Both the position numbers and the translations under genes were made by a program. From Cenococcum geophilum 1.58 (lineage: Eukaryota > Ascomycota > Dothideomycetes > Gloniales > Gloniaceae), in NCBI GenBank assembly GCA_001692895.1, contig KV748178.1, positions 1,474,536 through 1,538,535 on the forward strand: 64,000 bases of DNA. The letters run 5' to 3'. Of this stretch, positions 17,769 to 64,000 are shown piece after piece (the first letter of the stretch is position 1; every line of letters starts with the position of its first letter). The notes under the pieces were generated by a model, which was not told where the DNA came from, ran no database searches, and saw only the letters and a list, made by a program, of their open reading frames with translations.

Positions 17769-20732
17769 ATGNCTGCGGCCCGCGCCCCCAGTTCTACCCC
17801 AATACCTTCGACCGAGACAAATCCAGCAGATGGCGCATCTTCAAATGTTTCCGAGGAGGAATGGAAGGCCATGACCACTGTCTTGAACAATGTGTATGCC
17901 TATAGAATGGAAGAGTATGCTGTCTAGCCGTTGTTGTGGAGTGGCTGCGCCACCCGTTGAGTCATCAATGCTGATCGAACATTGCAGTGGTTACGACCCT
18001 TCGAAACTATTCCAGCGCAAGGTCAACAAACGCGCTGTGCCGGACTACTACAACGTCATTAAGGAACCTATGGCCCTTAGTATAATCAAAACGAAAGTTA
18101 GTGCGAAGGAATACAAGAGTTTCTCCGAGTTCGTGAGAGACTTCGCCCTCGTTCCACATAATGCCCAAGTATACAATCGCCAAGAATCTAGTGCATATCA
18201 GGATGCGCTGGAGGTGAAGAGGGTCCTCGGGTTGGAGCTAAAGAAGTTGGTTGACGAAAAGATCATCGCCGGAGATGCGGCGGCTCTACCCTACCTAGGT
18301 GAGATCCCCGAGCAAGACGAAGCAGCGCCAGAAGAAGAGGAAGAGGAGGAAGAGGAAGATGAGGACGAAGAAGATGAGGAAGTCGATGAGTCAGATGAAG
18401 AATCTGGCAAGCGGAAAAGGAAGCGGGGCCCACGATCTACAGCAGCAATAACAAAGCGGGAGGGAGGAACGAAGGTGAAGGACGAAACTGTGACCAAAGC
18501 CAATGACCCAGAATCACGGAAGAAACGAGGTCGACCCCCACGTGTCGATACCCCCATGGAGGCAAGAATTAAAGCTATCATGAAGGGTATTAGGAAACCG
18601 AGAAATTCCCAAAACAAACTCATGATAAGCCACTTCGAGCGTGTTCCTGACAAAGCCGTTATGCCGGAGTACCACGCTGAAATCAAAACCCCAATGGCGA
18701 TGGATATGCTCAAGGTGAAACCTCCCTAAATATCTTGCGCTAACAGCTCGGGCTAATTTGAGCTGCAGAAAAAATTGAAGCGGAAGAAATACAACTCTGT
18801 CGACCATTTTATGACTGACGTTGAGTTGATGTTCGAGAATGCCAAGCTGTATAACGAAGATGACAGTCAGGTATATAAGGATGCTGTTCACCTTCAAGTA
18901 CGTTTTCACAATCATTATACCCCTTAACTTTCTGACCATATCTGTAGAAAGAGTCACGGCTTTTAGCAGAGCAAGAGAAGAAGAAGCCTGATACAGAGTA
19001 TGTAATGGAAGAAGGTCGCTTGCCGATGCCAAACGGAATTCTTCACAACGGCGAACTGTGGAAAGTTGGTACGTATCATTGTCCTGCACCACTGAAAACT
19101 GAAGCTATCCTAACGCTTGAATAGGCGACTGGGTCCATATCCAGAATGCAAACGACCTTACCAAGCCAATCGTCGCCCAAATCTACCGTACATGGCAAGA
19201 TTCTGAGGGTGGCAAATGGGTCAATGCATGTTGGTACTACCGCCCTGAGCAGACCGTTCATAGGTTCGACAGACACTTTCTCGAGAATGAGGTCGTGAAA
19301 ACTGGACAATATCGAGATCACCCAATCGACGAAGTTGTTGACAGATGCTTTGTCATGTTTTTCACAAGATATAACAAGGGCCGTCCTCGAAATTTCCCCG
19401 CGGATAAGGAAATTTATGTCTGCGAAGCTCGATACAACGAGGAAAAACATAAGCTGAACAAGATTAAGACATGGGCCAGCTGTCTTCCGGATGAGGTTCG
19501 GGACAAGGATTATGAGATGGACCTTTTCGATGCCCCCCGCAAGATCAAAAAAGTGCCAAGTCCAATTGCGTATCTACTTAAGGATGAGCAAAAGGAGACT
19601 GATGATCTCCCTAAACCTGAATGGGGAGCTGAGAATGCTCCGCCTAAGATCGGTGCTGTGCACAGGAGGCCGCGAGATCCAAAGGTAGATATAAACCGCA
19701 CCCTGTTGCGAAGTACACACCTAGTTTGCCGGTGCTAACGGAAACAATTAGGAATCACCTCCACCTGAACCAACACCTTCACCACCGCCCCCACCTCCTC
19801 CACCCCCACCTAGACAACCGTCAAATATCACTAACCCGCCAACAAATGGTTTCGGTAGCGATCAACGCATGGATTTTACCATGGGTCAAACTCCAGCTCA
19901 AACCCCCATGCCCGCGCCAACCCCGCAGCCTCATCATGTCCCACCTACCTACACTCCTCAGCACACAAACCACTTTCACCAACACTCAGCTTCTCCAGTG
20001 CCGCCCATGCAGCATACTCCCGCCACCCAACCTTCGAGCTTTCCAACACTCACACCCCATCTGCCCTTCTCCACCCCTCAACCCACACCATCAACCCCGC
20101 ATTATTCAACTCCCCAAGCAACGAACACCTACCAACAAACGGCTGCCCGAGCCCCTCCACTGGGATACAAGACGCCACAGCCTGTAGAAGTCTACCACCT
20201 CAACGACCAAGCAAACCAATCCATCCCTCCGGACATCCGTGCGCAGTTCCACCAAGATGAGCAAGGCCGAGTTCTTTTCTTCACTGCGCCTCCGCTTGAT
20301 CCTCCCACGCCAGTGAAAGAGGGCGCGGCATTAGGGCATTCGGCTAGATATCTGGCCGCTAAAGCGAAGCGTGAAGCGTTGCTTGCGGAAAAGCGTAAGC
20401 AGGACGAAGCGCAGCTGGCAGAGAGAGCAGAGGCGGCCAAGCGAGCCAATGTAGAGAACGAAAAACGGTTCGTGGATTCCGTTAAGGATTTGGGCGTTAA
20501 GGCGCTTGAGACACTCGAGACACAGTTGGCTGAGGCTACGCGGAAGGAATTCGAGGGCTTGTTTACTCAGGACGTGGAGAAAGGCATGGTGGCAGAGCTG
20601 GAGAGGCTGGCGAAGGTGCAGAAGGATGTGGGAACGAGGGTTGAGGAGGTGATGCGACGAAGAGAGAGGGAGGCGAAGGAGGAGTCGTTGCCTATTCGGG
20701 GGATGACCGTTTTGTTGGAGGAGGCAATTTAG
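17769..20732 (+). CDS. RSC chromatin-remodelling subunit Rsc1/Rsc2 (two bromodomains + BAH)
   Basis: An 887-residue protein in six in-phase exons: 17769-17914, 17988-18714, 18769-18897, 18948-19068, 19125-19684 and 19752-20732. Bromodomain 1 spans about residues 30-135 with the acetyl-lysine-binding Asn in VYNRQ. An acidic Glu/Asp run (about 160-190) and an AT-hook-like KKRGRPPR follow. Bromodomain 2 spans about 240-334 (MFENAKLYNEDDSQVY). A BAH domain (about 376-490; GDWVHIQNANDLTKPIVAQIYR, CWYYRPEQT) leads to a Pro/Gln/Thr-rich tail and a C-terminal coiled-coil. This order is that of yeast Rsc1/Rsc2, nucleosome-binding subunits of RSC. One ambiguous base (17772) falls in codon 2 and cannot change the start. 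Confidence 0.92.
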
Positions 20733-21108
20733 GCTTAGTGGATTTGTGTGGGTTTTGACTGTACTAGTAATCCAGATTTGGCTGGGTTGACCTTCGGGAG
20801 GGCGATTAATGGGCCACGCTTTGGTGTTGCAAGTTCTTTCAAAACATGAACTGCAGCATTCGTGGGAGCTTTGCTACACGAAATGTATATTTTTGAACGA
20901 AATTATTTGTGACTCCTCTATCTGACTTTAGTTTAGCACGCATTAAAGGTACACGACAAATAATCAAGTGATGTTTTAAATGATGTCGTGGCAAACACAC
21001 CGTCGCTGCGTATTACTTTTGCATTCCTCATTTTAGAATTTTCCGTGAACAAGCACTCGAGGAAGCAGAACCACCAAACCAAGGCGGCGCTCACTAAAGC
21101 ATTACACT
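20733..21108. other. Intergenic: RSA3 promoter region
   Basis: 376 bases between two plus-strand genes; AT-rich in the middle, no gene seen. Confidence 0.4.
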
Positions 21109-21867
21109 ATGGCGCCAAAATCAAACCCTTCCATCACGAAGCCTAATGCAAGGCGTGCGCGGAAACGGAAAGCCAGGACGGAAGGTACTTCCAGGCTTCG
21201 GATTCATCTGCACGAGGGCCTTGGTAGCTAATCGATTTACAGTGTCTTCGTCGTCGTCTTCGTCGTCAGAAGATGAGAAGAGCAGCAGCAGCAGTAATGA
21301 GAACGGAGCACAGGAAGCAAATCAAAAGCCAAAAAAGGTGAGAGTTTGGGCAAACTTGATGTATCTCATATATTCATTACTTCTTCAAGGTTGAACGGAC
21401 GCCGTTAGTAAAAAAGGAGAGGAGGCGGCAGAAAGTTTCCGAAGAGCCTGCGGAGGAAATGGAAGAGGATGATACAAGCGCGGATAATAATGTAGGTCTC
21501 AATTCTTTGAGGAGAGAACCTCTTGTTTTCTGCGTCTACCAATTTGTGCTGTCTGCGGTTTCCTATCCCGTCTCCAGCTTCTCAATTGTACTACTTCATT
21601 TACGCCAAATATAACTACACCCCATTTCCCACGTAGCAACGGAGTACAGCGTCTAATCGATACTCATAGACACCAAAACCGCAACAAGAATCCTTCTCAT
21701 CATTCTACCTCCGCAAAGTTACGGCTGAACTAGCCGATGATCTAGACAAAGTAAGACAATCAAACGACTTCAATGACCGGAGTTTACCCATGCTTGTACA
21801 TGCGCTCAAACAGGGTGAGAGTATCTTTGGGAAGGAAGAGGCCGCCAGGGTTATAGGAAGACGGTGA
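21109..21867 (+). CDS. RSA3: Ribosome assembly protein 3
   Basis: A 156-residue nucleolar factor of the Rsa3 family, which acts in early 60S subunit assembly. Four exons close in phase: 21109-21184, 21243-21337, 21390-21491 and 21670-21867. The N-terminus is a basic patch (ARRARKRKART), then Ser-rich and acidic runs. The diagnostic RSA3 domain fills the last ~60 residues: FSSFYLRKVTAELADDLDKV and PMLVHALKQGESIF. The third intron (178 bases) is long for this window, and its AG (21668-21669) was chosen because it restores the domain in frame. Only this domain is recognisable; the rest is low complexity, as in relatives. Confidence 0.88.
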
Positions 21868-22064
21868 TGAGGCTGTGGCAGAGTTGGGAATTTACGTGAA
21901 GGTAGGAGGCCGAAGGAGCCACCTGAGAAAAATAGCGAAATTGAGGGCACTTAGGGTATGAGATGGAGTTCTAGTGTTCGTGGTTTGGAGGGAGTGACAG
22001 GGCTGCTTTTCTTATGGGTGCCTTTAATAAGAAAGCAATGAAAATCTCCGTGTTCTATTTTGCG

Positions 22065-22148
22065 TCAAGATTCATCATATATCATGTTAAATTCGTAGAA
22101 AAGTCGCATGAAGCTGCTAAAAGAATTCAAAGTTCCTCTAGCTGTCAT
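22065..22148 (-). pseudogene. Possible detached 3' end of the gene once divergent from SKI3
   Basis: If the inversion at 22150-23445 is undone, the 59-codon head at 23271 would run into this minus-strand frame, which stays open for 27 codons before a TGA at 22067-22065. The frame matches when the shared GATG is taken as the junction. No homology supports it, so this is a position-based inference. Confidence 0.25.
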
Positions 22149-23123
22149 CCATTCTCCACTCTAGCTCGATTTGCCATGCTAGCAAAAACGGATGCTTAAT
22201 AATAACCATACCATGAGCCAGTTTCATGACCTGGTCTCTCTTCTCTGCCTTCTTCTCCCTTGGTAATACCACAAGGGTGTCATAAGCATGTTGAAGCAAC
22301 TTCTCTTCATACGTCCGCCGCAATTCATCCTCGTTTGTCCAATCGATAATATGTTGGTATAGATCTTCCAGCTCACTCCGCTCATACACCTCCCGCTTGA
22401 CTTCCTTAGTGACTTCCCCAATTCGCGCGCCGAGCCTTGTCTTGCGTTCACCAATCTCTTTGTTGATACGCTCCGTCTCCGCGGCCTCTGTGATCTCTGC
22501 AATCCGCGTATAGGTGAGTGAGGGATGTGGAAGGCGGCCTTCGAGGAATTCGTAGATAGGGCTTGTGGGTAGTTGTACGGCTAACGCACGAGCGTACTGT
22601 GCTTTTGTTCCAAACTTGCGGGTGAAGTCGATGAGCTTGTCTATGCTGGTTTGGCATTTGTGCCTATCGTCTCTACTCTTATGTTATCAGACTTTGGTCC
22701 AGAACCGTAGATGCGAGGAGGTGCGAACTAACGCTGCGGCATAAATCTCTGCCAAGCGGAGGCCAATGGGGATGTATTCGTCGACTTTCCGTGGTCCTTG
22801 TGCTTCGTACACGCTCCGCAGCCCTTGCCATGCTTGATCATCGTTTGGTTTGATCCTAGTTGCAGACTCGTAGGTTTTAGCGGCTTCGTCAGGCTTGCCT
22901 TGCTTGTCAAGGGCCCGGCCGAGAAAGAGCTTCCTAGAACGAAGAATTAGTAATTGGACAGAAGAAAAGACTAAGCTAAATATGCGATGCCTAGGGGAAC
23001 TCACGCGAAGTAATTCTGCGGGTCTGAGGATATTACAAGTTCCGTTTGAACAATGACCTCATCGTAGTTCTGTGCGTCGAGAGCGGCCTTTGCGGCTTTG
23101 AGGCGGGCTTTAGTGCTAGACAT
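22138..23123 (-). pseudogene. SKI3: SKI3 N-terminal part, inverted and cut off
   Basis: Three in-phase exons (23123-23005, 22933-22733, 22672-22138) encode 284 residues. The first ~281 match the N-terminal TPR region of Ski3, the scaffold of the Ski complex that feeds mRNA to the cytoplasmic exosome. Landmarks are LKAAKAALDAQNYDEV, SSDPQNYFAKLFLGRALDKQ, QGPRKVDEY, LPTSPIYEFLEGRLPHPS, RTRLGARIGEVTKEVKREVY and MVIIKHPFLLAWQIELEW. Homology stops at LEW (about 22156), and a stop codon follows within six codons (22138-22140). The rest of SKI3 is on the opposite strand from 23445. Splice sites and frame are intact, so a short N-terminal protein may still be made. It is the host's own gene, split by an inversion. 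Confidence 0.85.
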
Positions 23124-23270
23124 GGTGGATGTGATGTCACCGGGGTGGAATTAGGAGGGAGAAAAAGGAAGAATAATCCATTCCTAAAGTGCGAGAGTAG
23201 ATGCAAGGTGTTTAAGTTGTGATAGAAATGTAAAGAGGGGAATTGATACAGAGAGCGTGATTATCCCTCC
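23124..23270. promoter_or_regulatory. Bidirectional promoter inside the inverted segment
   Basis: 147 bases separate the SKI3 ATG (23123, minus) from the ATG of the plus-strand head (23271). It lies inside the inverted block, so each arm still drives its native 5' end, but those 5' ends are now attached to the wrong gene bodies. It is AT-rich, with no box I would name. Confidence 0.5.
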
Positions 23271-26200
23271 ATGTCGCTAGCGCACGGAGCCCAAATTCAG
23301 CCCTACGGGATATTAAACGCCACCCCTCTCCACCCAAAAGAAGCAGACAGCACAAAGGTCGTATTTAATCTGCTTAGATATATCTATGGCACTTTCCAAA
23401 AGGATCCGATTGCCGATATGAGCCTGCCACTTGCCCTCAGGCTAGATGGCGCAGCGGATCTGCAAGATTTTGATATTGGCGTTGTTCGAGAGTTCATCGA
23501 GTTCTTTCCTGAGAACGGCCTTTCTAAAGTCTTGAAGGGTTATCTAAGCAGCGGTATCTCTCAGTTCCCTCTCAAGGCGCCACAGGTAGTCCAAGAAGGG
23601 CAGGAGAATGGGGGTGCGGAGAAGGATGTTCCTCTCCGTCCAGAGGACTGTCTGTTTCTAATGGCCGTGGGTGTTTATATTCCTTCGAATTATAGTCACT
23701 AAGTTCGTCTCTTGCAGGATGGAGTGGGCGAAGCCAAAGATTCTGTGTTAGCTCATCGTCTTATGGGCGAATATTACTTGTTCCTAGAAGAGTATGAGAG
23801 CGCTGTCGAGATAGCTCGTAAGGGCCTTAAATTCGTTGCTTCACAGACCCAGAAGACGGGTCTTAAATTCCAGAGGTAAATTGAATACTATATTCGTGGT
23901 GCACAAGCTAATGCAGCCGAAGAATTCTCGATGCTTTTAACAGTACTCTTGCAACGTCATTGATTCACTATCAGACTCCAAAGAACCATCCAGAAGCTAA
24001 AGAAATATTCCAGGAAATTCTGAAAAGGAGACCTACTTTTACCCCTGCACTTATTGGTATTGGTCTAATCCTTGAAGAGGAGGAAGAATATGTGGAAGCA
24101 ATTGACTTTTTGGAGCGCGCTCTTGTGCATGATGTTTCGAATGCCCGCATTGGAGCTGAGGCGGCCTGGTGTCAAGCACTCAGTGGAGACTATGCTACTG
24201 GTCTACAACGTCTCGAAGAGTACCTCGAATACCCCCAGATGGACTCTGCAGATCTGCGCGGCAGAGAACTCAAAGCACAAACACTGTACCGAATCGGCAT
24301 CTGTCTATGGGAGCTAGATCCCTCGAGATCAGCTCGAAAGGATCGACACCGGGCATATTCAAAATTCCTCGCTGCCATCAAGGTCAATGTTATCTTCGCA
24401 CCAGCGTACACGAGTCTTGGCATTTTCTATGCGGACTATGCGAAAGACAAGAAGCGAGCTCGCCAGTGCTTTCAAAAGGCATTCGAGTTATCAACTTCGG
24501 AGATTGAAGCCGCCGAGCGCCTCGCACGGTATTTTGCTGATCAGGGCGAGTGGGATATTGTTGAAGTTATCGCGCAACGCGTGGTTGACTCTGGGAAGGT
24601 TAGACCAGCGCCGGGCTCCAAAAAGAAGAAAGGCGTGAGTTGGCCATTCTCTGCATTAGGAGTTGTTCAGATGAACAAGCAAGAGTATCCGAAAAGCATC
24701 GTATCATTTCTATCAGCACTTCGCATTAGTCCTGACGACTATCATTCCTATGTTGGTCTTGGAGAGAGTTATCACAACTCTGGCCGCTACAATTCCGCCG
24801 CGAGAACTTTCCGTTACGCCGAAAATCCAACAGATACAATGCAGATGAAGAAGACCGGGGAGAGCTGGTTCACAAAGTATATGTTGGCTAATGTCAACCG
24901 AGAACTTGGGGAATACGATGAGGCTGTTCAAGGCTATCAAGAAGTATTGGAAGGCCGTCCCAAAGAGTTCGGAGTATCCATTGCATTACTTCAAACTCTC
25001 ATAGAAAGAGCTTGGAGAAATGTTGAAACTGGTTTTTTCGGAAATGCAGCAGACGCTGCTATCCAGGCAATTGATGTTGCCATATCAGTTTCCGAGTATA
25101 AACCAAACGCCTTCAATCTCTGGAAAGCTATCGGAGACGCGGCTGCAATGTTTTCCTGGATCCAAAGTCGATTGGAGGACGTACCTCTTGCTAAGATAAA
25201 ACGGTTGCTCGAAACTGCAATCAACCTCCAAGAATATGACTTGTTCGCAGACGCCGATGGAATTGGACCAAATCAAGTAGGCCGATTGTTTTCAAATGCT
25301 CAATCAGTTCAGGAGTCTAGTCTATCTCGCTCTTTACACGCCGCTATACTTGCTCAGAAGCGCTCAATAATCAGCTGTGCGCACGACATACATGCACAAG
25401 CTGTAGCATGGTATAACCTAGGCTGGACAGAGTATCGCGCTCACGTTTGTCTCGAACAAAGCCAGGAATCAGGCCAGGGAAAGACAAATACTAACTTTCT
25501 CAGGGCTTCAATGAAGTGTTTTAAGAGAGCAATTGAGCTTGAGGCAGGTAACTCTGAGTTCTGGAATTCTCTTGGAGTTGTTACAACCAATATGAATCCA
25601 AAAGTCGCCCAACACTCATTCGTCAGAAGCATTCACTTGAATGAGAAGAGCGCTCGGACATGGACGAACCTCGGAACTTTGTATCTACTTCAAAATGACC
25701 TGGAGCTTGCTCACACGGCTTTTTCTCGTGCTCAATCCACGGATCCAGACTATGGCCAAGCATGGCTAGGAGAAGGATTAGTTGCTCTCCTGTGGGGAGA
25801 CCCTATGGAAGCACTCTCCCATTTTACTCATGCCTTTGAGATTTCTGATTCGGTATCCCTGATCACTAAGCGACTATATGCAGTCTCAACATTCGACCAC
25901 CTCATATCTTCGTCTTCAGCGTCCAGCAGCATCATAGATCTTATCCAGCCTTTATTTTCCCTCCAGCAGCTGTACTTCCAGAAACCAATGGACATTCCTT
26001 ACCATCACCTTGCGGCCCTCTATCTCGAACGTGTTGGCAACCATAATGCTGCAATTGAGGGTCTAGTATCTTTATGCTCACTAGCAGAGACCGAATATGA
26101 GGAGTCTGAGTCCCAAGAGGCTCTCTCTCGCTTTGCCCAAGCAAAAACTGATCTTGCGCGGAACCGCCTTGCAGTTCACGACTACGCATCCGCGGTTGAA

Positions 26201-26944
26201 GATGCAGAAACCGCCCTTGATCTAGCCTCCAACCCGGAGTCGTGCAGTATGTCTCTCGAAATGTTCAAAAAGACCCGCCTGTCCGCTCGTCTAACTGCTG
26301 GATTGTCCCATTATTACCTCAACAACATGGATGCTGCATTGGGTGCCTTCCGCATTGCGCTTGAGGAGAGCAACAGCGCACCTGACGTCGTATGCCTTCT
26401 TGCTGAAGTCCTGTGGGCGAAGGGTGGTGAAGATGAGAAGAACGTTGCGCGGGAGCAGCTATTCGAAAGCGTCGAAAAACATCCAGAACATGTCGGCTCG
26501 GTTGTGCTACTAGGTGCTATGGCAGCTTTAGACGAAGATCCCGACACTATGGACGCGGTAAAGGATGATCTGCAAGCGTTGAGGACAAAATCAACTTTGG
26601 ATGCTATACAACTAGCGAGGGTTGAGAAAGTCCTTGATTCAATTGCGATGATGACTGGTGGCGTCGAGGAAGCGGAGAAAGAGGTTAAGAGAACGATTGT
26701 GCTCTCACCCTCAAAGGCGCATGGCTGGGCGCAACTGGCAGATTTCAGCGAAGACGTCTTCCCAGCGCAGATGGCACTTAAAACGGCGGAGAAAGCCGTG
26801 CCCCCACTTGGTCCACTGAGTGCAGTCAATTTGGCTGTTGCATTTGCTGGTACAGGGTCATTTGGAGATGCACAAAGAGCAATTACCCTCGCGCCTTGGG
26901 TCAAAGCCGGCTGGAATGCACTGGCAGAGTCCTTGGAGGGATAG
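23271..26944 (+). CDS. SKI3: Chimeric ORF: foreign 59-residue head fused to SKI3 body (TPR protein)
   Basis: Three in-phase exons (23271-23666, 23718-23875, 23917-26944) encode 1,193 residues. From about residue 61 (ADLQDFDIGVVREFIEFFP, 23451) to the end it is Ski3, continuing exactly where the inverted piece stops. TPR repeats run throughout (RPTFTPALIGIGLILEEEEE, WYNLGWTEYRAH, NSEFWNSLGVVTTN, SARTWTNLGTLYLLQNDLEL). Together the halves give about 1,414 residues, the usual fungal Ski3 length. Residues 1-59 are not Ski3-like and I do not recognise them; they look like the start of the formerly divergent gene. In yeast the C-terminal part of Ski3 holds Ski2 and Ski8, so this product might keep the scaffold while lacking the N-terminal arm; that is inference. 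Confidence 0.85.
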
Positions 26945-28031
26945 GACTTAGACCGATGATACTGAATGTTATTGAAGCAAGACAATATTGTTGAACTCGA
27001 TGCGACTATGTAGCAAGCGGTGTTGCTTGGTCCAAAATGCCATAAAATACTCTTCACTTTGTCTCACGGTGTCACATCTAAACTTCACAGCATCGCTCCC
27101 AAGCAGCACTTGTCAGGTCCTCTCCTCAAATTCCCATGCACTTGTGATCCTCTAACGGCTGTTAGTGTGCCATATACTGCTGCTACTTTTCTCCTTCCGA
27201 CACTTAACCTACACGTCTGTCATTACGATAGCTGCAATACGAAAGAATTATGTGAATCAAGAACTCGGGGCAGGGCACGTGAGGCTTAAGGTCTAATTGA
27301 ACTTATATGGTGATTCACGGAGCCATACTGCGCCTATTACATTACTACCTCCAACCTCCGATCTCTCGCTGGTGACGCATTTTCTAATCTTCTCAGTGTT
27401 TATACCCACCTCCTTGATACGTATTATTATATTCATCGATATAAGTTAATAAATCACTTTGTGGACGCTATCCTCACTAAGCATACAAGCAGGATGCCAC
27501 TACTTTTAGGGTATTCGAAGCCAGAGCTAGAAATATATCACAAGGATGCCTTGGAGTATTGGCGGCTCGTTTACATCGCTTCAGAAAAATTGCATAATTT
27601 CTCCTCACTAGATGGAAGGGCCCGTCAGACCTATTATGTATAATACACTTTTGGCCCAACATATTGGCCAAATTATTTTCGATTTTAAGGCCATTGGACA
27701 TAAAGAAAAGACTGATACGGTGTTATGGGCAGGACCATTTATTTATCATCCATTGAGTGCTTAAGTGGCAGCTCCCTCGTGTACATTGTCATTGATTATT
27801 ACTAAGCTGGAAGATACAGCATAGATCTGTAAGCCTGGTGAAGGTGATTGAGACTTGAATCAAATAAAAGCCAACTAAGGACACTGTCATCTCTATTCAA
27901 GAATATTAGCACTGTAGATGATTGTGAGAGAGTTTTTAATAAATACTTACTCGAGCGTTATATCAGCCCGATTAGGTCTTCCTATTGTCCCTAAGAGCTT
28001 CGATCATTCCCAACAGGTGTTCGAGACGTAT
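26945..28031. other. Intergenic, no supported gene
   Basis: 1.1 kb between SKI3 and the small membrane-protein gene. Scattered frames (27020-27289, 27461-27643) show no recognisable domain and are not called. AT content rises after 27300. It may contain decayed sequence, but I cannot assign it. Confidence 0.35.
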
Positions 28032-32685: not shown

Positions 32686-35600
32686 TTATCTAAAGCTTAA
32701 CTACCCTTTCTTTCTAAGAAGGAACTTAAATATATCTATGGACTATAAACTAGAATAGAATATAGAATTAGACCTAAAGAATATTACTAGAACTAGAAGA
32801 ATAGAAAAGAATAATAAGACCTATAGAATACGCATAGACTAGAACCCCTACAGAATCCTACTAAAGGTTACCCTAATAACTGTACTATAATGCCAAGAAA
32901 TATAGCAGCCGGCAAAGCAGCTATAGGACCCTCAAATACCTCTAATAGTGAAACAGTAACTAACTTAAACTCCTAAGTGGAGCTTATAGCAGCTAATGCC
33001 GAAATTAAATAACTTTAAGAGCTACTTAAAGCTAGAGAACCCCCTACGCCTAGTAAGGAATTATTAAACACCTAAAGACTTACTATAGTCCTTAAGGCTT
33101 TAGCCTAACGTATAGTATTAGCATTATTACGGTCCGTAAAGGTCGCGGACCCTCTATTGCTTATAGACAGAACCGACCCTATATTTAATAATTAGAAGCT
33201 TTAATTACAGGATAAGCTTAAAGTTAATACGGACTACTTCCCTACCACTTAGGCTAAAATGGCCTACGTTTTTAGCCGTACCGGTAGAGACGTATAGACG
33301 CACCTATATCCGCGGTACGTATAGGACTTAGCAGAGCTCTTCCTCTCTAAAGAAGAGATAATTATTTACCTGTCTTCTATTTATAAGGACCCCTTTAAAG
33401 TATAAAACGCCCAACTTAATTATAAAAGCCTAAATATAAAAACGACAAAGACCTTCTTAGCCTTTTAGACCCGCTTTCTACACCTAGCTAGCTAGGCTTA
33501 AATTCCCCAAAAAGATCTAATGCTAAACCTATTTAATAAGCTTACCCTAAACCTATAGCAAGCCATACTACTAGTTTTTACTACTGTATAGACGCTAAAG
33601 GAACTTATAGACTAGTGCTTGGCTATTAACTAAGGCCTCCGCTAAATTAAGGTATGTGCTAAACGGTATAAAGCTAGAAACCCTTTAAATTAGACTATAA
33701 GCAATATAAGAATAGCCTATAATACCCTAGCACAATCAGTAACCCCTATAGTACCACCTATATAGCCTACCGCTAATTTAGCAGCTAGCCGTACAGCTAG
33801 CCCTACTATAGGTCCGGCGAATACTCAGCCTATATATAGCAACCCCTATATATAGGCCCTTAGTAATTAAGGAGCTTACTTCTCTTATAGACAGAAAGGT
33901 TACTATATAAGGGATTGCCTAATAAACGCGAAAGTGAATAAGGTTCTATTAATCTAGGAGGATAGCGCGGAGTTAGAAAAAGAGGAACCCTAAAGAAAGA
34001 CTCCTCTTTAGGGTTAAAAGGGATTAATATATTAGATATTAATCTAGGTCGGCTAGTTAGTAAAAGAAGCTGCACTATCCCTTATACTTTATTCCGCAAT
34101 AGATACTAAGTTTTAACCTCTGCTTTAGCTAACTCTAGAGTAAATACCTTCGCCTTAATAGATACCTAGTATGCTATAAAGCTAGCTGACTTTCTAAATA
34201 TATCTATTAAAGAACTACCCAAACTAATTCCTATCCGCGGGTATAATAGGCAGATAGGACTACCTATTACAACTATCTTGCGGATTTACCTCCGTGTTAA
34301 CAGATAAAGGCAGTATAACGCCCCCTTCCTTATTACGGACCTAGGTAGCTATAATATAATCTTAGGGCGAAAATAGCTAGCCTATTTAGGCTTATAGCTT
34401 AACATACGGAGTAGACGGCTTACCTAGCCTAAAACCCTACCCCTAACCCCTTCCTTTATAAAAGAAATCAGCATTATAATAGAAAACCTCATACAGCCCT
34501 AAATTAATACTATTTACTAGGCCGATGCTGTGCGTAGGGACTAGGCCTTTAAAAAAGATATATAGCTTAATTCGTAACAGATCTATATACTACATCGCCC
34601 CCAGACTACCTATATCACGCCACCCGCATTAAAGACCTAGGAAGTCAGTAGTAACCTAAAAAAGCCCCCTATAGAGAGCTTAGGCCTTATATAGCTACAA
34701 AGAACAGTAAGGGACGTTAGATGTTACACTAAACTAATAGATTAGAGGGATAACCTATGGAAGATGGAATAGGAGCTAAAAAAGATTATAAACCCTAAAC
34801 CATAAAATACGGTTTAGAAAATAGCTATAAGGAAACTAGCGGACCTCCTACTAGTTAATGTCTGCTATATTAGTGCTATAGAATTCTACCAGAACTTAGT
34901 TTAGCCTAATACCATCGCCTTTATAACGAGCTTATATAAAATTAATTAAATAATTAAGGAAAAGGGAAATAAGCTTAGCGGATAAAAAAGTAAGCTTATA
35001 GATAAGGAACTAGTAGAATAAAAGCTACCCTATTAACACCAGAAATTTAAGGATATATTCTCTAAAGCAGCGTCTAATATACTTCTACCTTACCAACCGT
35101 ATAACTATAAGATTAAAATTAAGCAGGGCAAAGAAAATACCCTTAGCTTTAGCCCCCTCTACAAGCAGTCTATTACCGAATTATAGGCTATAAAGTAGTA
35201 TCTTATTAATAACCTAAATAAGGGCTTTATTAAGCCTAGCTAAGCCCCTTTTACCTCACCTATTCTCTTTATTAAAAAGCTAAATAGAGGACTCCGCTTC
35301 TATATTAACTACTATAAGCTAAATAATATAACCNNNAAGGATNNCTATCCGCTGCCNNTACTTAATAAGACTNTAGCCNAAATAAGTAGAGCTAAGGTCT
35401 TTATAAAGCTTAATATCCGCTAGGCCTTTTACTAAATTAGGATAAACCCCGGGTTTAAAGATCTTACTATGTTTTAGACCTATTACGGAACATATAAATA
35501 TAAAGTGCTCCCTTTTAGACTGACTAATGGACCAGCTATATACCAGCGGTATATAAACAATATACTCTTTAACTACCTTAACGATTTCTATACGGCCTAT

Positions 35601-41112: not shown

Positions 41113-41227
41113 GATGGGTGGTGTCATGCGCGGGTATAGAAAAGTGGTTCAAACAGGTGAGGATTCGGTAAATTTCTGTACTTGATCATGGTTTCTGACA
41201 TAAACCCGTCCTTTTCCGAAGCGACTG
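41113..41227. repeat. Right terminal inverted repeat of the DNA transposon
   Basis: Near-exact inverted copy of 32245-32358, ending CCGAAGCGACTG before TA at 41228-41229. It has normal base composition beside a heavily mutated interior. Confidence 0.85.
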
Positions 41228-41292
41228 TACAGTATTGTCAACGCTCGCAAGGCCCGCTGTGCCATTCATGCCGCTCGTCTTCATCTATTCAA
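41228..41292. promoter_or_regulatory. Right remnant of the divergent promoter, before RMI1
   Basis: Only 65 bases separate the transposon end from the RMI1 ATG. Any RMI1 transcription must start here or within the transposon end. Confidence 0.5.
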
Positions 41293-41979
41293 ATGTCCAC
41301 TTCTGCCGGCTTTGTTCGAGAATTAACTGCCTACCTAACTCTAAAGAACCTCCCGCCATCTTCCCCTTGGTTCCAATCTTTCCTCCCGACCATTCGTGCC
41401 TCCACTCCTCTCCCCGCTCTCCAAAAAACCGCTCTCTTCCGTCTCCTCGCATCGGATATAACACAATCCTTGGAACGTACCCCGTCATCGATCTTCCCCG
41501 CTGACATTCATAATGCCCATATCAAAGAGCGTAAGCTTGTGGGGCCGATAGCATGCCAAGTGCTGGATGTCGAGGACATTGGACAGAGTAGGTGGAGCCA
41601 GGTCGAAGCGCTGGAGGCGGCCGAGAGGGGAGAAGGGAAAAAAGGTCGAGAGGTGATCCGTGTCATACCTTCAGATGAGCAAGGTGGGGACCGCGGAGCG
41701 TATGTGAGTTTGGGGCCACATAAACTGCTCGTGCAAGATGCTCAGGGGACGAGGGTGTACGGGATGGAGCTCCAGACGATAGAGGGCATTAACGTCAATA
41801 TGAGTATTGGGACGAAACTGGTACTGAAAGACGTTATTGTTGCCAGAGGAGTCATTTTGCTGGAGCCGCAGAGCGTGAATGTGTTGGGAGGGAAGATTGA
41901 ACAGTTACACAAAGAGTGGAGGGAGACCAGGAAGGAGAGGCTGAAAATTGCTGTTGGAATGGTGGTAGAGACGGGGTAA
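41293..41979 (+). CDS. RMI1: RecQ-mediated genome instability protein 1
   Basis: A 228-residue, intronless Rmi1, the OB-fold partner of the RecQ helicase (Sgs1/BLM) and Top3 in the dissolvasome that unlinks double Holliday junctions. The N-terminal helical part (ASTPLPALQKTALFRLLASD) is followed by the OB fold: IKERKLVGPIACQVLDVEDI, GQSRWSQVEALEAAERGE, REVIRVIP, KLLVQDAQGTRVYGMELQ, NMSIGTKLVLKDVIVARGV and LLEPQSVNVLGGKIEQLHKEW. The open frame extends upstream to 41182, but those 37 codons lie largely in the transposon repeat, so the ATG at 41293 is the native start. A longer N-terminus would arise if transcription began within the repeat. Confidence 0.92.
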   Translation: MSTSAGFVRELTAYLTLKNLPPSSPWFQSFLPTIRASTPLPALQKTALFRLLASDITQSLERTPSSIFPADIHNAHIKERKLVGPIACQVLDVEDIGQSRWSQVEALEAAERGEGKKGREVIRVIPSDEQGGDRGAYVSLGPHKLLVQDAQGTRVYGMELQTIEGINVNMSIGTKLVLKDVIVARGVILLEPQSVNVLGGKIEQLHKEWRETRKERLKIAVGMVVETG

Positions 41980-44662
41980 GGTCCTACGAGGATTACATGG
42001 GATCCTCGCCTTGGACTCCTAATCCGTCATTAGATGTATGATGTGGTATGGGAAGATGCTTTATACACAATCGGGCCATTCGTTCATATATGAGCAGTCA
42101 TTGCGTTGTAAATATTTATTCATCTTCTTACGCCTAGTATAGTGGCTCAGTCTAATGTGTACAGCAGGGCTAATTCAAGCCTGCAACTAATTTTCCGGTA
42201 ATATGTATAGATCTGCTAAAGATTGCTAAAGTGCAGCTAAGCCAATGAAATTCCTGCATCCAATCATTTTTTCTCACGAATAAGTTTCCGTCAGCATACT
42301 GCCTCACTGTCTGGTACAGCACAAAGCCTGCGGGCAGACCGATTTCAGGATCATTAATGATTCCAAGCTGATCTGGCTTGCCGGCTTGGGCATTAGAATA
42401 GATGGAACAATCACACCCAATAGCATTGAGCTGGCCATTGCTTAGTGCTAGGTCAGTCATTCGCGCCATCTTCCCAGTGGCATCATAGCGTAAACCCAAT
42501 GCTTTGACGTAGCAAGTGAAGTTTCAGTTATAGGGAAACCACTGAAGCCTGTAATCATGATATTTTATGTAGTGCTTGCTTGATTTACGGAGGTGCATTA
42601 CGATAAGGGTATTGCAGTCTGCTTCTTGAGCATGAAAAGTCAATGCCTGCTACGGCAGGGGTATGCGAAAGACTGCTTGGTTGGAGGGCGGAGGCTGACG
42701 CGATAATTCATCAAAGCTACCTCAAGCGATTTATTGAATATGCTGACACGTAGACCTCTGTCTGATTGGTTTGCTGTACTCTTGCTCGGTCGTCTTGTCA
42801 AATCCAGCAATTGGGTATGGTTTAATTTGATGATGACCGGAAGTTCTTCTCTCGTGCTCTCATCCACTTTCGCGCGTGTGCGAATTTAGAAGCCGAGATA
42901 GGACGAGATAGCCTCGCGAGTACCTATGTGACTACGCGGGATAGACTCGGTGAGGAAGTAGATAGTAGGCGTACAGTAGTCGCGGGCCATGCACGAATGT
43001 TCGTCGGGGTCGTAGAGTCAATTTCGGATCTTCCACAAGCAGATAGCCAATCAATCGAGCTGAATTTAACGCCCGTTTTAAGAAATATAAAGCTTTTAAT
43101 TTATGGTAATTTTATATGCACGCCTAATTTTAGGAATTACGTCGTTCGATATAAGGCTGCTAGCACTTATCCTTCCTATAGAACGGTATTTTACATTATA
43201 GTAGGTAATTAATTGATGGAATCTATATGGGTGCACGCGTTGTTGTTCGCGCACGGGCCATTTGCTCGTTGGACGCTGAGGGATAGCCTTAAAATTTTAA
43301 TATTCCTCTTACCGCTCGCAAAACGCTAGAATAGGAATCTAAACTAAAAGTCTGGTAGAAAGAACGCGTTCCTTCCCGATTTAACACGCGTCTATATAAC
43401 TCTATGGGTTGCACGGATATATACAATATAGAGGCTTTAGATTAAAATGGAATCTAAATGTAGAGTTTTAAGCTCCATTTTAGAAGCTGTATACGGTGGG
43501 GTTGCCAATATTTTAGCGTACTATTCTGGCGTTTTGCTAGGAACATTAAACTTTTAAGGCTGTGCAGACAAAATCACTCCGAATCAACAGATTAACGTCG
43601 CGAGCCACACAAGGAAATGCCTACCATATTTTATTTCATAGCAAATTACACCCAAATTAAAAAGCCTCAGCATATTACACAATTCTAAATTAATCTCTAC
43701 CCTCTTGTGAAGCTGAGGCTACTATACAAAATATTATATAAGATGTCTCTTCTAGTATTAAGCCATCGATTCGCAAAGCCTCCGGCGCCTATGGAGCACC
43801 TAGATCTACCGTTGGACACTATTTTGCTGGCTATCTCCTATAATACGAAGCTCACCCCGGTTTATTGTATCCTTTATAAGAAGAGTAAGTTATTAAATAG
43901 GTTAATAAATGCGAATCCTAGGACCTTCTATTAAAAGTTAATATGCTCTTAAAAATGGCTTATTCCCTTTTGGTGTCATGACCTTGCGCTACCCATACGG
44001 CAGGTATGGGCCGGAGAGCTTATAAGGCATTCCAACCGGCAGCCCGTCCAGTCGCGAGACACTGCTGCTACCTTTTTGGTAGTTTGTATGGTCAAGTGGG
44101 TTGGGCTTGGGCATGACATTTAGGAAAAGGCTAAACCGTAGGCAAGCATTAGGGGCAGAGATTCGTTTAATGCTACGGCCTTAGTACTATACTAAACCGT
44201 CGACTTAACTGCTAAAGAGCTTAGAATAACGATCTAGTAGTTATACGTGCCTGGTTTAAGTTCTTCCGTAGTATATGTAAGCGATATTACGTTAAGCATT
44301 TAAATTTTTAATGAGAAGGGAGTGATGCTAGGCCCCGCAGCGGTGGCCTAAGTAATTGTGTTAGGTAAGATATATAGGGAGAGGTTAAAAAATTGAATAG
44401 TTATATAGCCAGGCACTTATGGGTCAGTATCTGTAATTAAGATAATTAGCGCTAATAGTTCTCTACTCCCTGCCTTCTTAATTTAGAAGGTATAATACTA
44501 CTAGAAAGGATAGTATTTAATTAATAAATAAAATAAGGGCCTTTGCGGATGCACGTATGCTACCTCCTCTAGTAGATAAATAGATAACTCCTAAGACCTA
44601 TATTATATTAAACATTATAATAAGCATACAAGATACCTTATAGAAGTTTTTAATAGTAGAAT
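41980..44662. other. Gene-poor transition zone into the repeat island
   Basis: 2.7 kb downstream of RMI1. Up to about 43060 composition is near normal, with unplaced minus frames at 42499-42170 and 42867-42640 that show no known domain. From 43060 it turns AT-rich with islands of normal composition (for example 43960-44160). It is probably fragments of old repeats; I cannot assign a family. Confidence 0.4.
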
Positions 44663-55000: not shown

Positions 55001-57817
55001 TTAGATATAGGGTCTATCCTAATTTAGTAGAAAGCTTGGCGGATATTAAGTTTAGTAAAGATCTTTGCCTAGCTTAGATATATAAGGGTCTCGTTAATTA
55101 AAGGAATAGGATACTAGTCCTTTTAAGTAATAGCATTTAGCTTTTAATAGTTAATACAAAAACGAAGGCCTCTATTAGGCTTTTTTATAAATAGGATAGG
55201 GGAAGTAAAAGGGGCTTAACTTAGCTTAATAAACCCCTTATCTAGGTTATTAATTAAGTACTACTTTATTACTTTTAGCTTATCCGTTAATTAATAGTAG
55301 AAGGGGCTATAGCCTAGCGAGTTATTGGCTTCTAATTAAATCTTATAATTATACGTCTAGTAGGGGGGTAACTTATCTAAGGCCGCCTTTGAAAATGCAT
55401 CCTTATAGTTTATATAAATAGTAAAAAGGAGGCGTTTAACTAGTTCCTTGTCGGTTTCCTCAGCTAGCCTTTCCTCTCTATTATTAATAATTTGGTTAAT
55501 CTTATATAGGCTTATTATAAAGACCTTATTGTTCTTCCGGTATATATTAAAGTGAAACACTATAGCGCTAATTACGGCAATGTCTACGGTAGGGGGGTTA
55601 TCTAATAATAGGGGCGTATATAACTTTAGGGACTTCTAGGGTACTGGCGTTATTATTACCCCTTTTAGCTCCTATTATATTTTTTAAAGGTTATCCCTTA
55701 TATCCTATTAATACGTTCTTTTCTATACCGGTTAAATCTATATAATTTAGACGTTATCTATATTACTATTTATCCCACTTTTATATATAGAGTCCTCTTT
55801 AAATATAGCGCTTTAGGAGAGTATTTTTATTAGTACGGAGTTCTTTCTAGCTTTACGGCGGGCGTCTTCTTAGGTAAAGGCTAGGTTACGGGCCTAAACA
55901 TCCTACTAGTAGGTAGGGTTAGCCCTTATAGCTAGTGTCTTGCGGTTGGTTTAGATCTCCCTAATAAAGGAAGGCAACCTTGGTCTATCCTCTAGCTAGA
56001 TAAACTGTCTTTATTATATATTTAACCAGATATTAAAATAGGATATCTATTTTTGTCTAAGGATTATATTATAAAACCCTAGGTCTAGGATGCAAAAGGG
56101 GATGCTATATTAGCGTCGTTTGTTAAGAGCGATATATAACTTTAAGACGTGGGTAATAGGCTAACCGGCTTGGCCGTTATAGCCTTTTACCTAGATAGGC
56201 TTCTCTAGTTAAATGGCTTCTACATTTAGAAACTTGGCAATATTATTTATATAGGTAGTATTTATAAAGGCGAAGCCATTTACTCTAGTATTAATAAGGG
56301 CGGTTATATTAACTCTATATCTATTTTAAGATACTATATATAGAAACGTGAAATACTTTCTACCTATTAACTAACTAAGATTAATCTCTTTAAGATTAAT
56401 AGGGTACCCTAGGGGGGAGTCTTTCCCTAGGGTTCCTCTTTTCCCAATTTATCTAACGTTTCTCCTTCCTCTATCTCCTTAATATCGCCTATATCTTTTA
56501 GCTCTGGGTAGGATAAGGTAAAGTAACCCTACTTATTATAGTTGAAGTATATAGCCGAGGCAGGGTTAATTAGAGTATTGCGGCGAATACTAGTTAATAG
56601 TATAGTATATAACTAGTTAGGCAAGGCTCGCTAGTGCGTAGTTATAACTACCTTTAGTAAAAGAGTAGTTATAACTTATCTTCCTACTCTAGCTTCTATA
56701 GGTATAGCTAGCGAGTTCCGATTGTTATAAAGTCGCTTCTACTAATTAGGGTAGGCGTTAATTCGCTTTAGTTCTAAGTCTAATAATAGGCAACAAGCTA
56801 TAAGTTTTTTGTGGGTTAGTAGGTTATCTAAGGTTATAGCGATCTTTTCTTATAGCTGGATTATTAGCTTATTATATAGGTCTAATTAGTAGTTNTTAAG
56901 GGGNACCTNGCCTTCTNCTATAAGNTATAGGAATTAAGTNTAGAATTTANNAANGGGTTAGTTTAGTTTTATTATTAGGCGATTATAGTTATAATAGGCA
57001 TCCTGTACTTTGTTTAGGTTAATATAAATAGCCGCTAGGTACCGTATTATCTTATTAATAAATATAAATTAAATAGGGGAGTCGTCCTTAAACTTGGCTT
57101 AAAGGTGCCGTTAGGCGTCCCTAGTGGTTTAACTAAAGAGGTAGAGCATTTTGGCTTCTTCGAAAAGGAAATAGTTATAGTTAATATAGAGCTTTCCTTA
57201 TACTTAAATCCTCTAATTCTTAAAGGTAGGGTCTATCCTATTAGATAGTAGTAGGGGGTTAGGGAGCTTAACGGACTTTAATTACTTTATTATTGTATCC
57301 GTACTCCCTAGTATATTATATTTAGTAAAGTAAATAGGTTAGCTAGGGCTTTAAGAAGGGGAAGCTAGGCTATTTTATAGGGCTGTAAGGCTTTCTAGGA
57401 TCTCTTATAGGGTCTTTTATATATTTCTTACTTTAAGACAATTGGTTTCCTAGCTAGCTATAAGGGCATAAATCTGCTCGCGTATATTTATAACGTCATC
57501 GTTATCTTTAATTTCTAATCCTAATTAGATCTTAGGTTCCTCTTAGGTAGAGGCAGCTCTCTTAAATAAGCTTACTTTAGGTGCCATTGTTAGCTTCCTA
57601 AGGTTTATTAGTATTGTACGCTTTAGTTTTAATTCTGGGGGTATAGGTCTAGTCCTATTTAGCTTATAAGGTGGGATATTATCTAGGCCTTCTTAGGTAA
57701 TATAGAGTTGTTTTAGTGTCTAAGTATAGTATATTAATGCGTCGTTGCAGACGAAGTTTCTTTAGGGTGGGATATTATTAAGGCCTTCCTAGGCAAGGTA
57801 GAGAGAGCTTAGTATAA

Positions 57818-62964: not shown

Positions 62965-63165
62965 TATTAGCGACTTAGTTAATTAAGGCACGAGCACGGC
63001 AAGAGGGACGCGCAAGCCTATACGATTGGTAGTCTATAAACGAGGATCTAAAGCTAGAGAAAGGAAAGGAGAAGAAGAGCAGCGCCGGTCGAAGTAGGGT
63101 TCTTTTATACGGTCCTCTAGTCACGTGACCGCGAAGTTCTNCNAAGTTCTNCCAGTGCCGTAANA
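62965..63165 (-). repeat. 3' LTR of Gypsy family 1, copy B
   Basis: About 201 bases, the inverse of the LTR at 32474-32685; the other LTR lies outside the window. Confidence 0.85.
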
Positions 63166-64000
63166 TTACCCCCCCCTCNNNAAAAGCCTGCCCTTAGGCT
63201 TTATAGTCCGTATTATGCTTATAGGGCGTTCTTATCTTTATATTCTTCTAGTAGCTTATTATCTTTACTATGCTAGCACTCCATCTACTCGTCTAGGTAC
63301 TTTAGGGGTCCTAGTTTATTAGGGTAGCGGTTATAGAATTCTTAAAGCTTATAGGGACTACCAATAAAGTTCTATATAGGGTACTAGGTAGGATCTAGGT
63401 TATAGCCTTTCCAACTAACGCGGTACTTTAGCGTTTTCCTTACTAGTTTATAGGCTAGTACTTCTTTAATTTCCTATTCGTTATCGCCATTAACTTAAAT
63501 TAGTAGGGGAGGTTTATTCTTTTATTTAGGTAATAGGTCGTTTATAGCTTTCTATAGCTTATCCGGCAAGAAAATAGGGTAAACCTTAATTAAATCCGGG
63601 AGCTTTACTTTATACGAGTTACCTATCTTTTTAAGGACCTTATACGGTCCCGCTATCTAATAGTCTAGCTTATAGCTAGGCCGTTCCGTCTTTTAGTTCT
63701 TTATTATAACCTAGACTATATCGCCTACGGTAAAGTTAGGTTCGCGCCTATACTTATTTGCCTGCTATTCTATTAATTTCTAGGCCTTTTCTAGATTTAT
63801 ACGGGCTACTGTCTAGGCTTCCTCTAAGCGCTTAGCGTACTGCTAGGCTTCCTTATAAGACAGTTTCTTATATACAGTCCGTAGTCCTTCTAGTCTATCC
63901 TAATTAAAGCTTATTTAGGGTAAATACCCTATTTCTAGTTAGATAGGTGTAAATCCCGTAAAGTTATAGGGTAGGTATAACGGAACCTTATAGTAAGAAC
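62965..64000 (-). mobile_element. Gypsy family 1, copy B (3' end; runs off the window)
   Basis: A minus-strand relative of the 32.5-38.3 kb element. The 3' LTR is 62965-63165, then the polypurine tract as a C-run, then the chromodomain (about 63.5-63.3 kb) and integrase end, continuing past the window edge. Ambiguous bases lie at about 63141-63181. It is decayed like the others and is inserted into the family-3 fossil. Confidence 0.85.

What the first reader, a model, noticed from the sequence alone, without database searches (positions are those of the whole stretch)
22138..26944. SKI3 is split head-to-head by an inversion of about 1.3 kb
Seen directly: codons for the first ~281 residues of Ski3 lie on the minus strand (23123 to about 22156), and residues from the very next position to the C-terminus lie on the plus strand from about 23450. 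Both pieces keep phase-consistent introns, and together they add up to one Ski3 of about 1,414 residues. An inversion with ends near 22150 and 23445 explains this. Established: Ski3 is the scaffold of the Ski2-Ski3-Ski8 complex that feeds RNA to the cytoplasmic exosome and limits dsRNA viruses in yeast. Inference: this strain lacks normal Ski3 or makes it as two proteins.
Basis: partly seen in the sequence, partly recalled or inferred. Interest (0 to 1): 0.85.

Follow-up and report, generated by a model that had tools for sequence, protein, structure and literature searches.

The report
Fungal SKI3 gene split by inversion
In this fungus the only copy found of SKI3, a gene for a core RNA-disposal scaffold protein, has been cut in two by a small flipped piece of DNA, leaving two intact half-genes back to back; whether the cell makes a working two-piece protein or has lost it is not yet known.

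Summary
The first 280 residues of a Ski3 lie on the minus strand (23123 to 22138, 284 codons, two introns). The rest lies on the plus strand (ATG 23418, end 26944, 1144 codons, two introns). Their aligned ends fall at yeast Ski3 residues 292 and 295. Each part was found once in the 177 Mb assembly; no normal copy was found. An exact inversion with ends at 22146-22149 and 23445-23448 explains this: undone, it gives one open frame of 1416 residues. The inverted piece carried the DNA upstream of SKI3, so 294 bp of it now sit between the two start codons and face both halves. Both halves are free of stops, and SKI2 looks intact, so the event is either recent or the halves are still used. I favour a real inversion (about 0.8). 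Its effect is open: a two-polypeptide Ski3, as with split Doa10 in Kluyveromyces, or a loss-of-function allele. An assembly error is unlikely but cannot be excluded without reads. No fungal relative could be searched, so the age of the inversion and its presence in other strains are unknown.

The parts
22138..23123 (-). SKI3 N-part gene: 284 codons, three exons (23123-23005, 22933-22733, 22672-22138). Encodes residues 1-280 of a Ski3 plus four junction residues and a stop.
   Evidence: Splicing and translation; yeast Ski3 1-292; Pfam TPR_22 at residues 142-229, E 2.8e-31
22934..23004 (-). Intron 1 of the N-part, 71 nt, GTGAGT...TAG
22673..22732 (-). Intron 2 of the N-part, 60 nt, GTTAGT...TAG
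22146..22149 (.). Left end of the inversion (CATC, reverse complement of the right end)
   Evidence: In-frame join that keeps the E-W shared with yeast Ski3:
23445..23448 (.). Right end of the inversion (GATG)
   Evidence: the 4-bp match itself is not significant
23124..23417 (.). 294-bp region between the two start codons. Before the inversion it was the upstream region of SKI3; now it faces both halves. Proposed shared promoter.
   Evidence: Geometry; promoter activity not tested
23418..26944 (+). SKI3 C-part gene: 1144 codons, three exons (23418-23666, 23718-23875, 23917-26944). Last part of the N-terminal arm plus the C-terminal TPR arm.
   Evidence: yeast Ski3 473-1333 E 1.1e-91; first exon
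23271..23417 (+). In-frame upstream extension of the C-part: 49 codons from an alternative ATG at 23271, in former upstream DNA; does not align with Ski3
23667..23717 (+). Intron 1 of the C-part, 51 nt, GTGGGT...CAG
23876..23916 (+). Intron 2 of the C-part, 41 nt, GTAAAT...CAG
21109..21867 (+). RSA3 (ribosome-assembly protein 3), the neighbour upstream of the old SKI3; now tail to tail with the N-part
   Evidence: PF14615 on its last exon, E 7.7e-21; start codon read from the sequence printed, exons not modelled

Best explanation
A double break in the single-copy SKI3 locus was repaired with the 1.3-kb piece between 22146 and 23448 turned round. The piece held the SKI3 upstream region and the codons for residues 1-280. 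The N-part kept its own upstream region and start codon and now stops four codons past its last Ski3 residue. The C-part lost its start codon but came to lie downstream of the other face of the same region, with an in-frame ATG nine codons before the junction (23418). I think it most likely that both halves are transcribed divergently from that region and that Ski3 is made as two polypeptides: a detached piece of the N-terminal arm, and a C-part with the C-terminal TPR arm that in the human complex holds Ski2 and Ski8. Shown by sequence: the two halves, their introns, their order, one copy found, and the open frame when the inversion is undone. Inferred: that the inversion is in the living genome, the divergent transcription, and that the pieces work. 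Confidence in the inversion alone is about 0.8; the figure below is for the whole chain.
For: The halves match Ski3, with aligned ends at yeast residues 292 and 295. The reverse operation is base-exact, in frame and yields 1416 aa. Four of four introns have GT-AG ends and keep frame. Each half was found once in 177 Mb. No long inverted repeat flanks the piece that would favour mis-assembly: of 31 pairs in 21800-23700 (25 listed) the longest are 22 nt at 73-77% and do not pair the two ends. No N near the ends; the nearest are 17772 and 29064. 284 and 1144 codons without a stop. SKI2 was found once, with Ski2_N, DEAD, Helicase_C, stalk and DSHCT domains in open frames. In the human complex the N-terminal arm (predicted TPR 1-8) is flexible and left unmodelled, while Ski2N and both Ski8 bind the C-arm, TPR 9-40 (PMC8860381: passages and section 9). 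Precedent: K. lactis Doa10 is encoded in two pieces that assemble, with a promoter in the intervening sequence (PMC3464245: abstract and passages).
Against: No transcript, protein or read was available. No relative was available to date the event, so open frames may only mean that it is recent. The start context at 23418 (GCCGAT before ATG) is not strong, and an out-of-frame ATG at 23386 opens an 11-codon frame that ends on top of it. The 66-codon open stretch before the junction is only a modest departure from chance (stop frequency 5.0% per trinucleotide there; so about 3% for one frame, chosen after the fact). SKI8 and SKI7 were not looked for.
Confidence: 0.42

Rival explanations
1. The inversion is real but recent, and SKI3 is simply broken in this strain: the C-part is not expressed usefully and the frames are intact only because there has been no time to decay. 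Other strains carry the normal gene.
For: Base-exact reversibility with no extra changes needed at the join fits a young event. Loss of Ski3 is viable in budding yeast (ski3 deletion, PMC10089162, passages) and in Aspergillus oryzae, with a growth defect on maltose (PMC10551036, passages).
Against: An in-frame ATG lies just before the C-part junction. SKI2 appears intact, but that is also expected if the event is recent.
Confidence: 0.33
2. Assembly error: the 1.3-kb piece is placed in the wrong orientation in this sequence and the cell has a normal SKI3.
For: A frame that closes perfectly when the piece is turned is what an orientation error would also give. If the source is the 178-Mb Cenococcum geophilum assembly, it was built from short reads with AllPaths-LG and gap-filled with a 3-kb PacBio library (PMC5023957, passages); that small contigs can be misplaced in such assemblies is my own knowledge.
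Against: A misplaced contig should leave gaps or lost bases at its ends; here both joins are seamless, without N, unique in the window and in single-copy DNA, with no long inverted repeats.
Confidence: 0.17
3. The two halves are joined again at RNA level, by trans-splicing or from an inverted template.
For: Nothing direct; both halves are intact.
Against: The break lies inside an exon by homology, and the N-part ends with a stop four codons after it; on reading the sequence I saw no GTRAGT-like donor there. No search for donors was run.
Confidence: 0.03

Closest known systems
Split-Doa10 of Kluyveromyces (PMC3464245)
   Same: A conserved nuclear fungal gene divided into an N-part and a C-part; in Doa10 the intervening sequence acts as promoter for the C-part and the pieces assemble into an active enzyme (abstract and passages).
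   Different: [quoted passage not shown] Here the halves are head to head, made by inversion, around the old upstream region; nothing is known of function or age. Doa10 is a membrane protein, Ski3 a TPR scaffold.
Ski3 / TTC37 of yeast and human
   Same: Sequence over most of the yeast protein, TPR make-up, order of parts.
   Different: One polypeptide there; two genes on opposite strands here.
Intrachromosomal inversions of Dothideomycetes (mesosynteny, PMC3516569)
   Same: Frequent inversions in filamentous ascomycetes (passages).
   Different: Those seen between close species are described as large, with simple repeats over-represented within 500 bp of breakpoints; here 1.3 kb, inside a gene, with no tandem repeat within 500 bp of either end (only one found in 21000-24500, at 21244-21267).

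Membership tests
Ski3 (TTC37) orthologue | Homology to Ski3 along its length, N- and C-terminal arms | tested here: met
   Yeast Ski3 1-292, 295-355 and 391-456, 473-1333. The last part of exon 3 (query 897-1010) and yeast beyond 1333 did not align.
Ski3 (TTC37) orthologue | Single continuous polypeptide (usual state, not part of homology) | tested here: not met
   Two reading frames on opposite strands; no other copy found in the assembly. I therefore call it a split SKI3, not a normal one.
Ski3 (TTC37) orthologue | Binds Ski2 and Ski8 | not testable with these tools
   SKI2 gene present; SKI8 not searched
Gene fission with retained function (split gene) | Halves lie apart and together cover the ancestral protein | tested here: met
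Gene fission with retained function (split gene) | Both halves have open frames with start, stop and splice sites | tested here: met
Gene fission with retained function (split gene) | Both halves are expressed and kept by selection | not testable with these tools
   No RNA data; no relative usable for comparison in the collections searched
Divergent gene pair with shared promoter | Starts less than 1 kb apart, head to head | tested here: met
   294 bp between the start codons; transcription starts unknown
Divergent gene pair with shared promoter | Promoter active in both directions | not testable with these tools
   The promoter scan offered is for bacterial sites and was not used as evidence

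The most novel reading that the evidence does not exclude
A single small inversion turned a one-piece Ski3 into a working two-subunit Ski3 and in the same step supplied the promoter for the orphaned half, by placing the old promoter between the two halves. The helicase gate would then be a C-arm scaffold with a detachable N-arm piece whose supply can be regulated separately.
Probability: 0.25. Interest if true: 0.65.

Novelty: new variant of a known kind. Interest (0 to 1): 0.45.

Why it matters
Ski3 is the scaffold of the Ski2-Ski3-Ski8 complex that feeds RNA to the cytoplasmic exosome and limits dsRNA viruses in yeast. If the split is functional, it is a natural test of which part of Ski3 the complex needs in one chain, and of the role of the N-terminal arm, which is flexible in human structures. 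It would also show how an inversion can divide a gene and hand both halves a promoter at once. If it is a loss, it marks a fungus without a normal Ski complex.

Tried and rejected
Relatives: IMG/VR gave one weak match over 60 residues (33%, L005), not read further. The prokaryote genome collection gave none. No fungal collection was open to me, so no dating and no selection test was possible.

Alternative break pair 22160/23446 (6-bp TCTAGC, also in frame): set aside because it would make the E-W at the end of the N-part, shared with yeast Ski3, a coincidence. It cannot be wholly excluded; it would move the left end by 14 bp. A third in-frame pair with a 4-bp match, 22147/23459, would drop further C-part codons and was set aside too. 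Another 6-bp pair, 22137/23446, is out of frame. The 4-bp match at the chosen ends is not evidence: within 3 nt of random position pairs a match of 4 or more occurs in 15% of 3000 trials.

Structure predictions without an alignment: N-part last exon mean pLDDT 62.8, C-part third exon 41.3. Too poor; not searched and not used.

Rfam: no family reached its threshold in the window.

Source organism: nothing names it. The RIP-like AT-rich blocks, short introns and uL3 closest to PDB chains 8oo0_LB, 7olc_LB and 7r81_E1 (453-455 bits against 402.3 and less for the others of the 60 shown; organisms recalled as Chaetomium and Neurospora) point to a filamentous ascomycete. Size 177.2 Mb fits Cenococcum geophilum, 178 Mb (PMC5023957); this is inference only. 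The 5.8S searches found nothing and the 18S search failed twice.
Full report
What is there. The window is 64 kb of a 177,193,698-base assembly in 162 contigs. On the minus strand, from an ATG at 23123, three exons with two GT-AG introns (71 and 60 nt) encode 284 residues ending LAWQIELEWRMDDS. On the plus strand, from an ATG at 23418, three exons with two GT-AG introns (51 and 41 nt) encode 1144 residues; an earlier in-frame ATG at 23271 would give 1193. Splice sites were chosen by eye for frame and homology. There is no stop in either spliced frame.

What the pieces are. The N-part aligns over residues 1-280 with yeast Ski3 1-292 (E 9.9e-22). It holds one full Pfam TPR_22 domain (E 2.8e-31), the only TPR_22 match found in the assembly. 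Engineered TPR proteins also score well with it, two of them with better E-values than Ski3, because they repeat the motif; none covers its length. The third exon of the C-part aligns with yeast Ski3 473-1333 (E 1.1e-91) and over a shorter stretch with human TTC37. Its first exon aligns with yeast 295-355, weakly by itself (11.5 bits), and with 391-456 (26.7 bits). The last aligned residue of the N-part is at yeast 292. The two parts therefore abut. The extension before the junction does not align with Ski3, as expected of former upstream DNA.

Single copy. The DNA of 22138-23500, the last exon of the N-part and the third exon of the C-part each match one place in the assembly, this one. A normal SKI3 elsewhere in the assembly is thus unlikely; sequence missing from the assembly cannot be judged, and the 5.8S rRNA was not found either.

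The inversion. I listed pairs of ends with an inverted match of 4 bp or more and asked which would restore a common frame. Ends at 22146 and 23448 share CATC/GATG. Undone, they give ...LAWQIELEWRM then DGAADLQDFD..., open, 1416 residues in all. Four residues then lie between the aligned ends, where yeast has two. Yeast Ski3 has E-W at the same place. Two other in-frame pairs exist, 22160/23446 and 22147/23459; the first would leave that E-W unexplained, the second would drop further codons of the C-part. The 4-bp match is not significant: 15% of random position pairs have one within 3 nt. No long inverted repeat or tandem repeat within 500 bp marks the ends. End joining after a double break is therefore the likely origin, by inference.

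Real or assembly error. Both joins are seamless, unique in the window and free of N; the Ns in the window lie at 17772, 29064 and in clusters beyond 35 kb. A contig turned in scaffolding should leave gaps. On the other hand, a frame that closes perfectly when the piece is turned is also what an orientation error would show. If the source is Cenococcum geophilum, its assembly was made from short reads with gap filling by PacBio (PMC5023957, passages only). I put the error at 0.17. Reads would settle it.

Consequences. The inverted piece carried about 320 bp from upstream of the SKI3 start. In the new order 294 bp lie between the two start codons and could drive both halves. The C-part reads open for 66 codons back from the junction (the other two frames are open for 0 and 23), with ATGs at 23271 and 23418; an 11-codon frame at 23386 ends on the second. 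None of this proves expression. In the human complex, predicted TPR 1-8 form a flexible N-terminal arm and TPR 9-40 hold Ski2N and Ski8 (PMC8860381, passages and section 9). Human SKI7 binds at TPR 29-30 and the 40S subunit at TPR 39-40; the same paper says that the SKI7 contact is not conserved in budding yeast (PMC11540850, passages). So, by position, the C-part should keep the Ski2 and Ski8 sites, while the site for a fungal Ski7 is not known here. The N-part is a large share of the N-terminal arm. A two-piece Ski3 could therefore work, at least partly. SKI2 was found once and carries its expected domains in open frames; I did not splice it, and of its four exon-sized frames two matched Pfam, one gave no match and one was not scanned.

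Functional split or loss. Intact frames and an intact-looking SKI2 fit both a retained split and a recent loss. Ski3 loss is viable in budding yeast, where it raises L-A Gag levels (PMC10089162, passages), and in Aspergillus oryzae, where growth suffers on maltose but not glucose (PMC10551036, passages). I lean slightly to a retained two-piece gene, without strong evidence.

Known parallels. Gene fission of a conserved fungal gene with both pieces working together is known: Doa10 in Kluyveromyces (PMC3464245, abstract and passages). Frequent inversions are known in Dothideomycetes (PMC3516569, passages). I saw no report of a split SKI3 in the listings of my searches: SKI3 with filamentous fungi (2 of 2 papers listed), Ski3 arm (2 of 2), gene fission and inversion (15 of 49; 12 of 318), Ski3 and mycovirus (12 of 562), Ski3 partners (12 of 22). 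These cover open-licence PMC papers only, and most were seen only as listings.

Noticed in passing
window 32001-64000: RIP-like AT-rich DNA (TpA/ApT 1.38-1.98 in 15 of 16 two-kb blocks, 0.97 in the block at 42001; GC 0.33-0.43), with a gene island near 41-43 kb encoding an RMI1 N-terminal region (41161-41976, PF08585 and PF21000).
   Followed up: no
window 35334-35379, 56895-56954, 63141-63181: Clusters of one to three Ns inside the AT-rich DNA, as from uncertain consensus bases.
   Followed up: no
whole assembly G000: No 5.8S rRNA was found by family or by a conserved 20-mer with one mismatch; rDNA may be absent from this assembly.
   Followed up: partly
window 23386-23421: An 11-codon upstream frame (ATG 23386) whose TGA stop overlaps the C-part ATG at 23418 as ATGA.
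   Followed up: no
window 26317-27063, minus strand: A 249-codon open frame, largely antisense to the 3' end of the C-part; probably a by-product of coding constraint.
   Followed up: no
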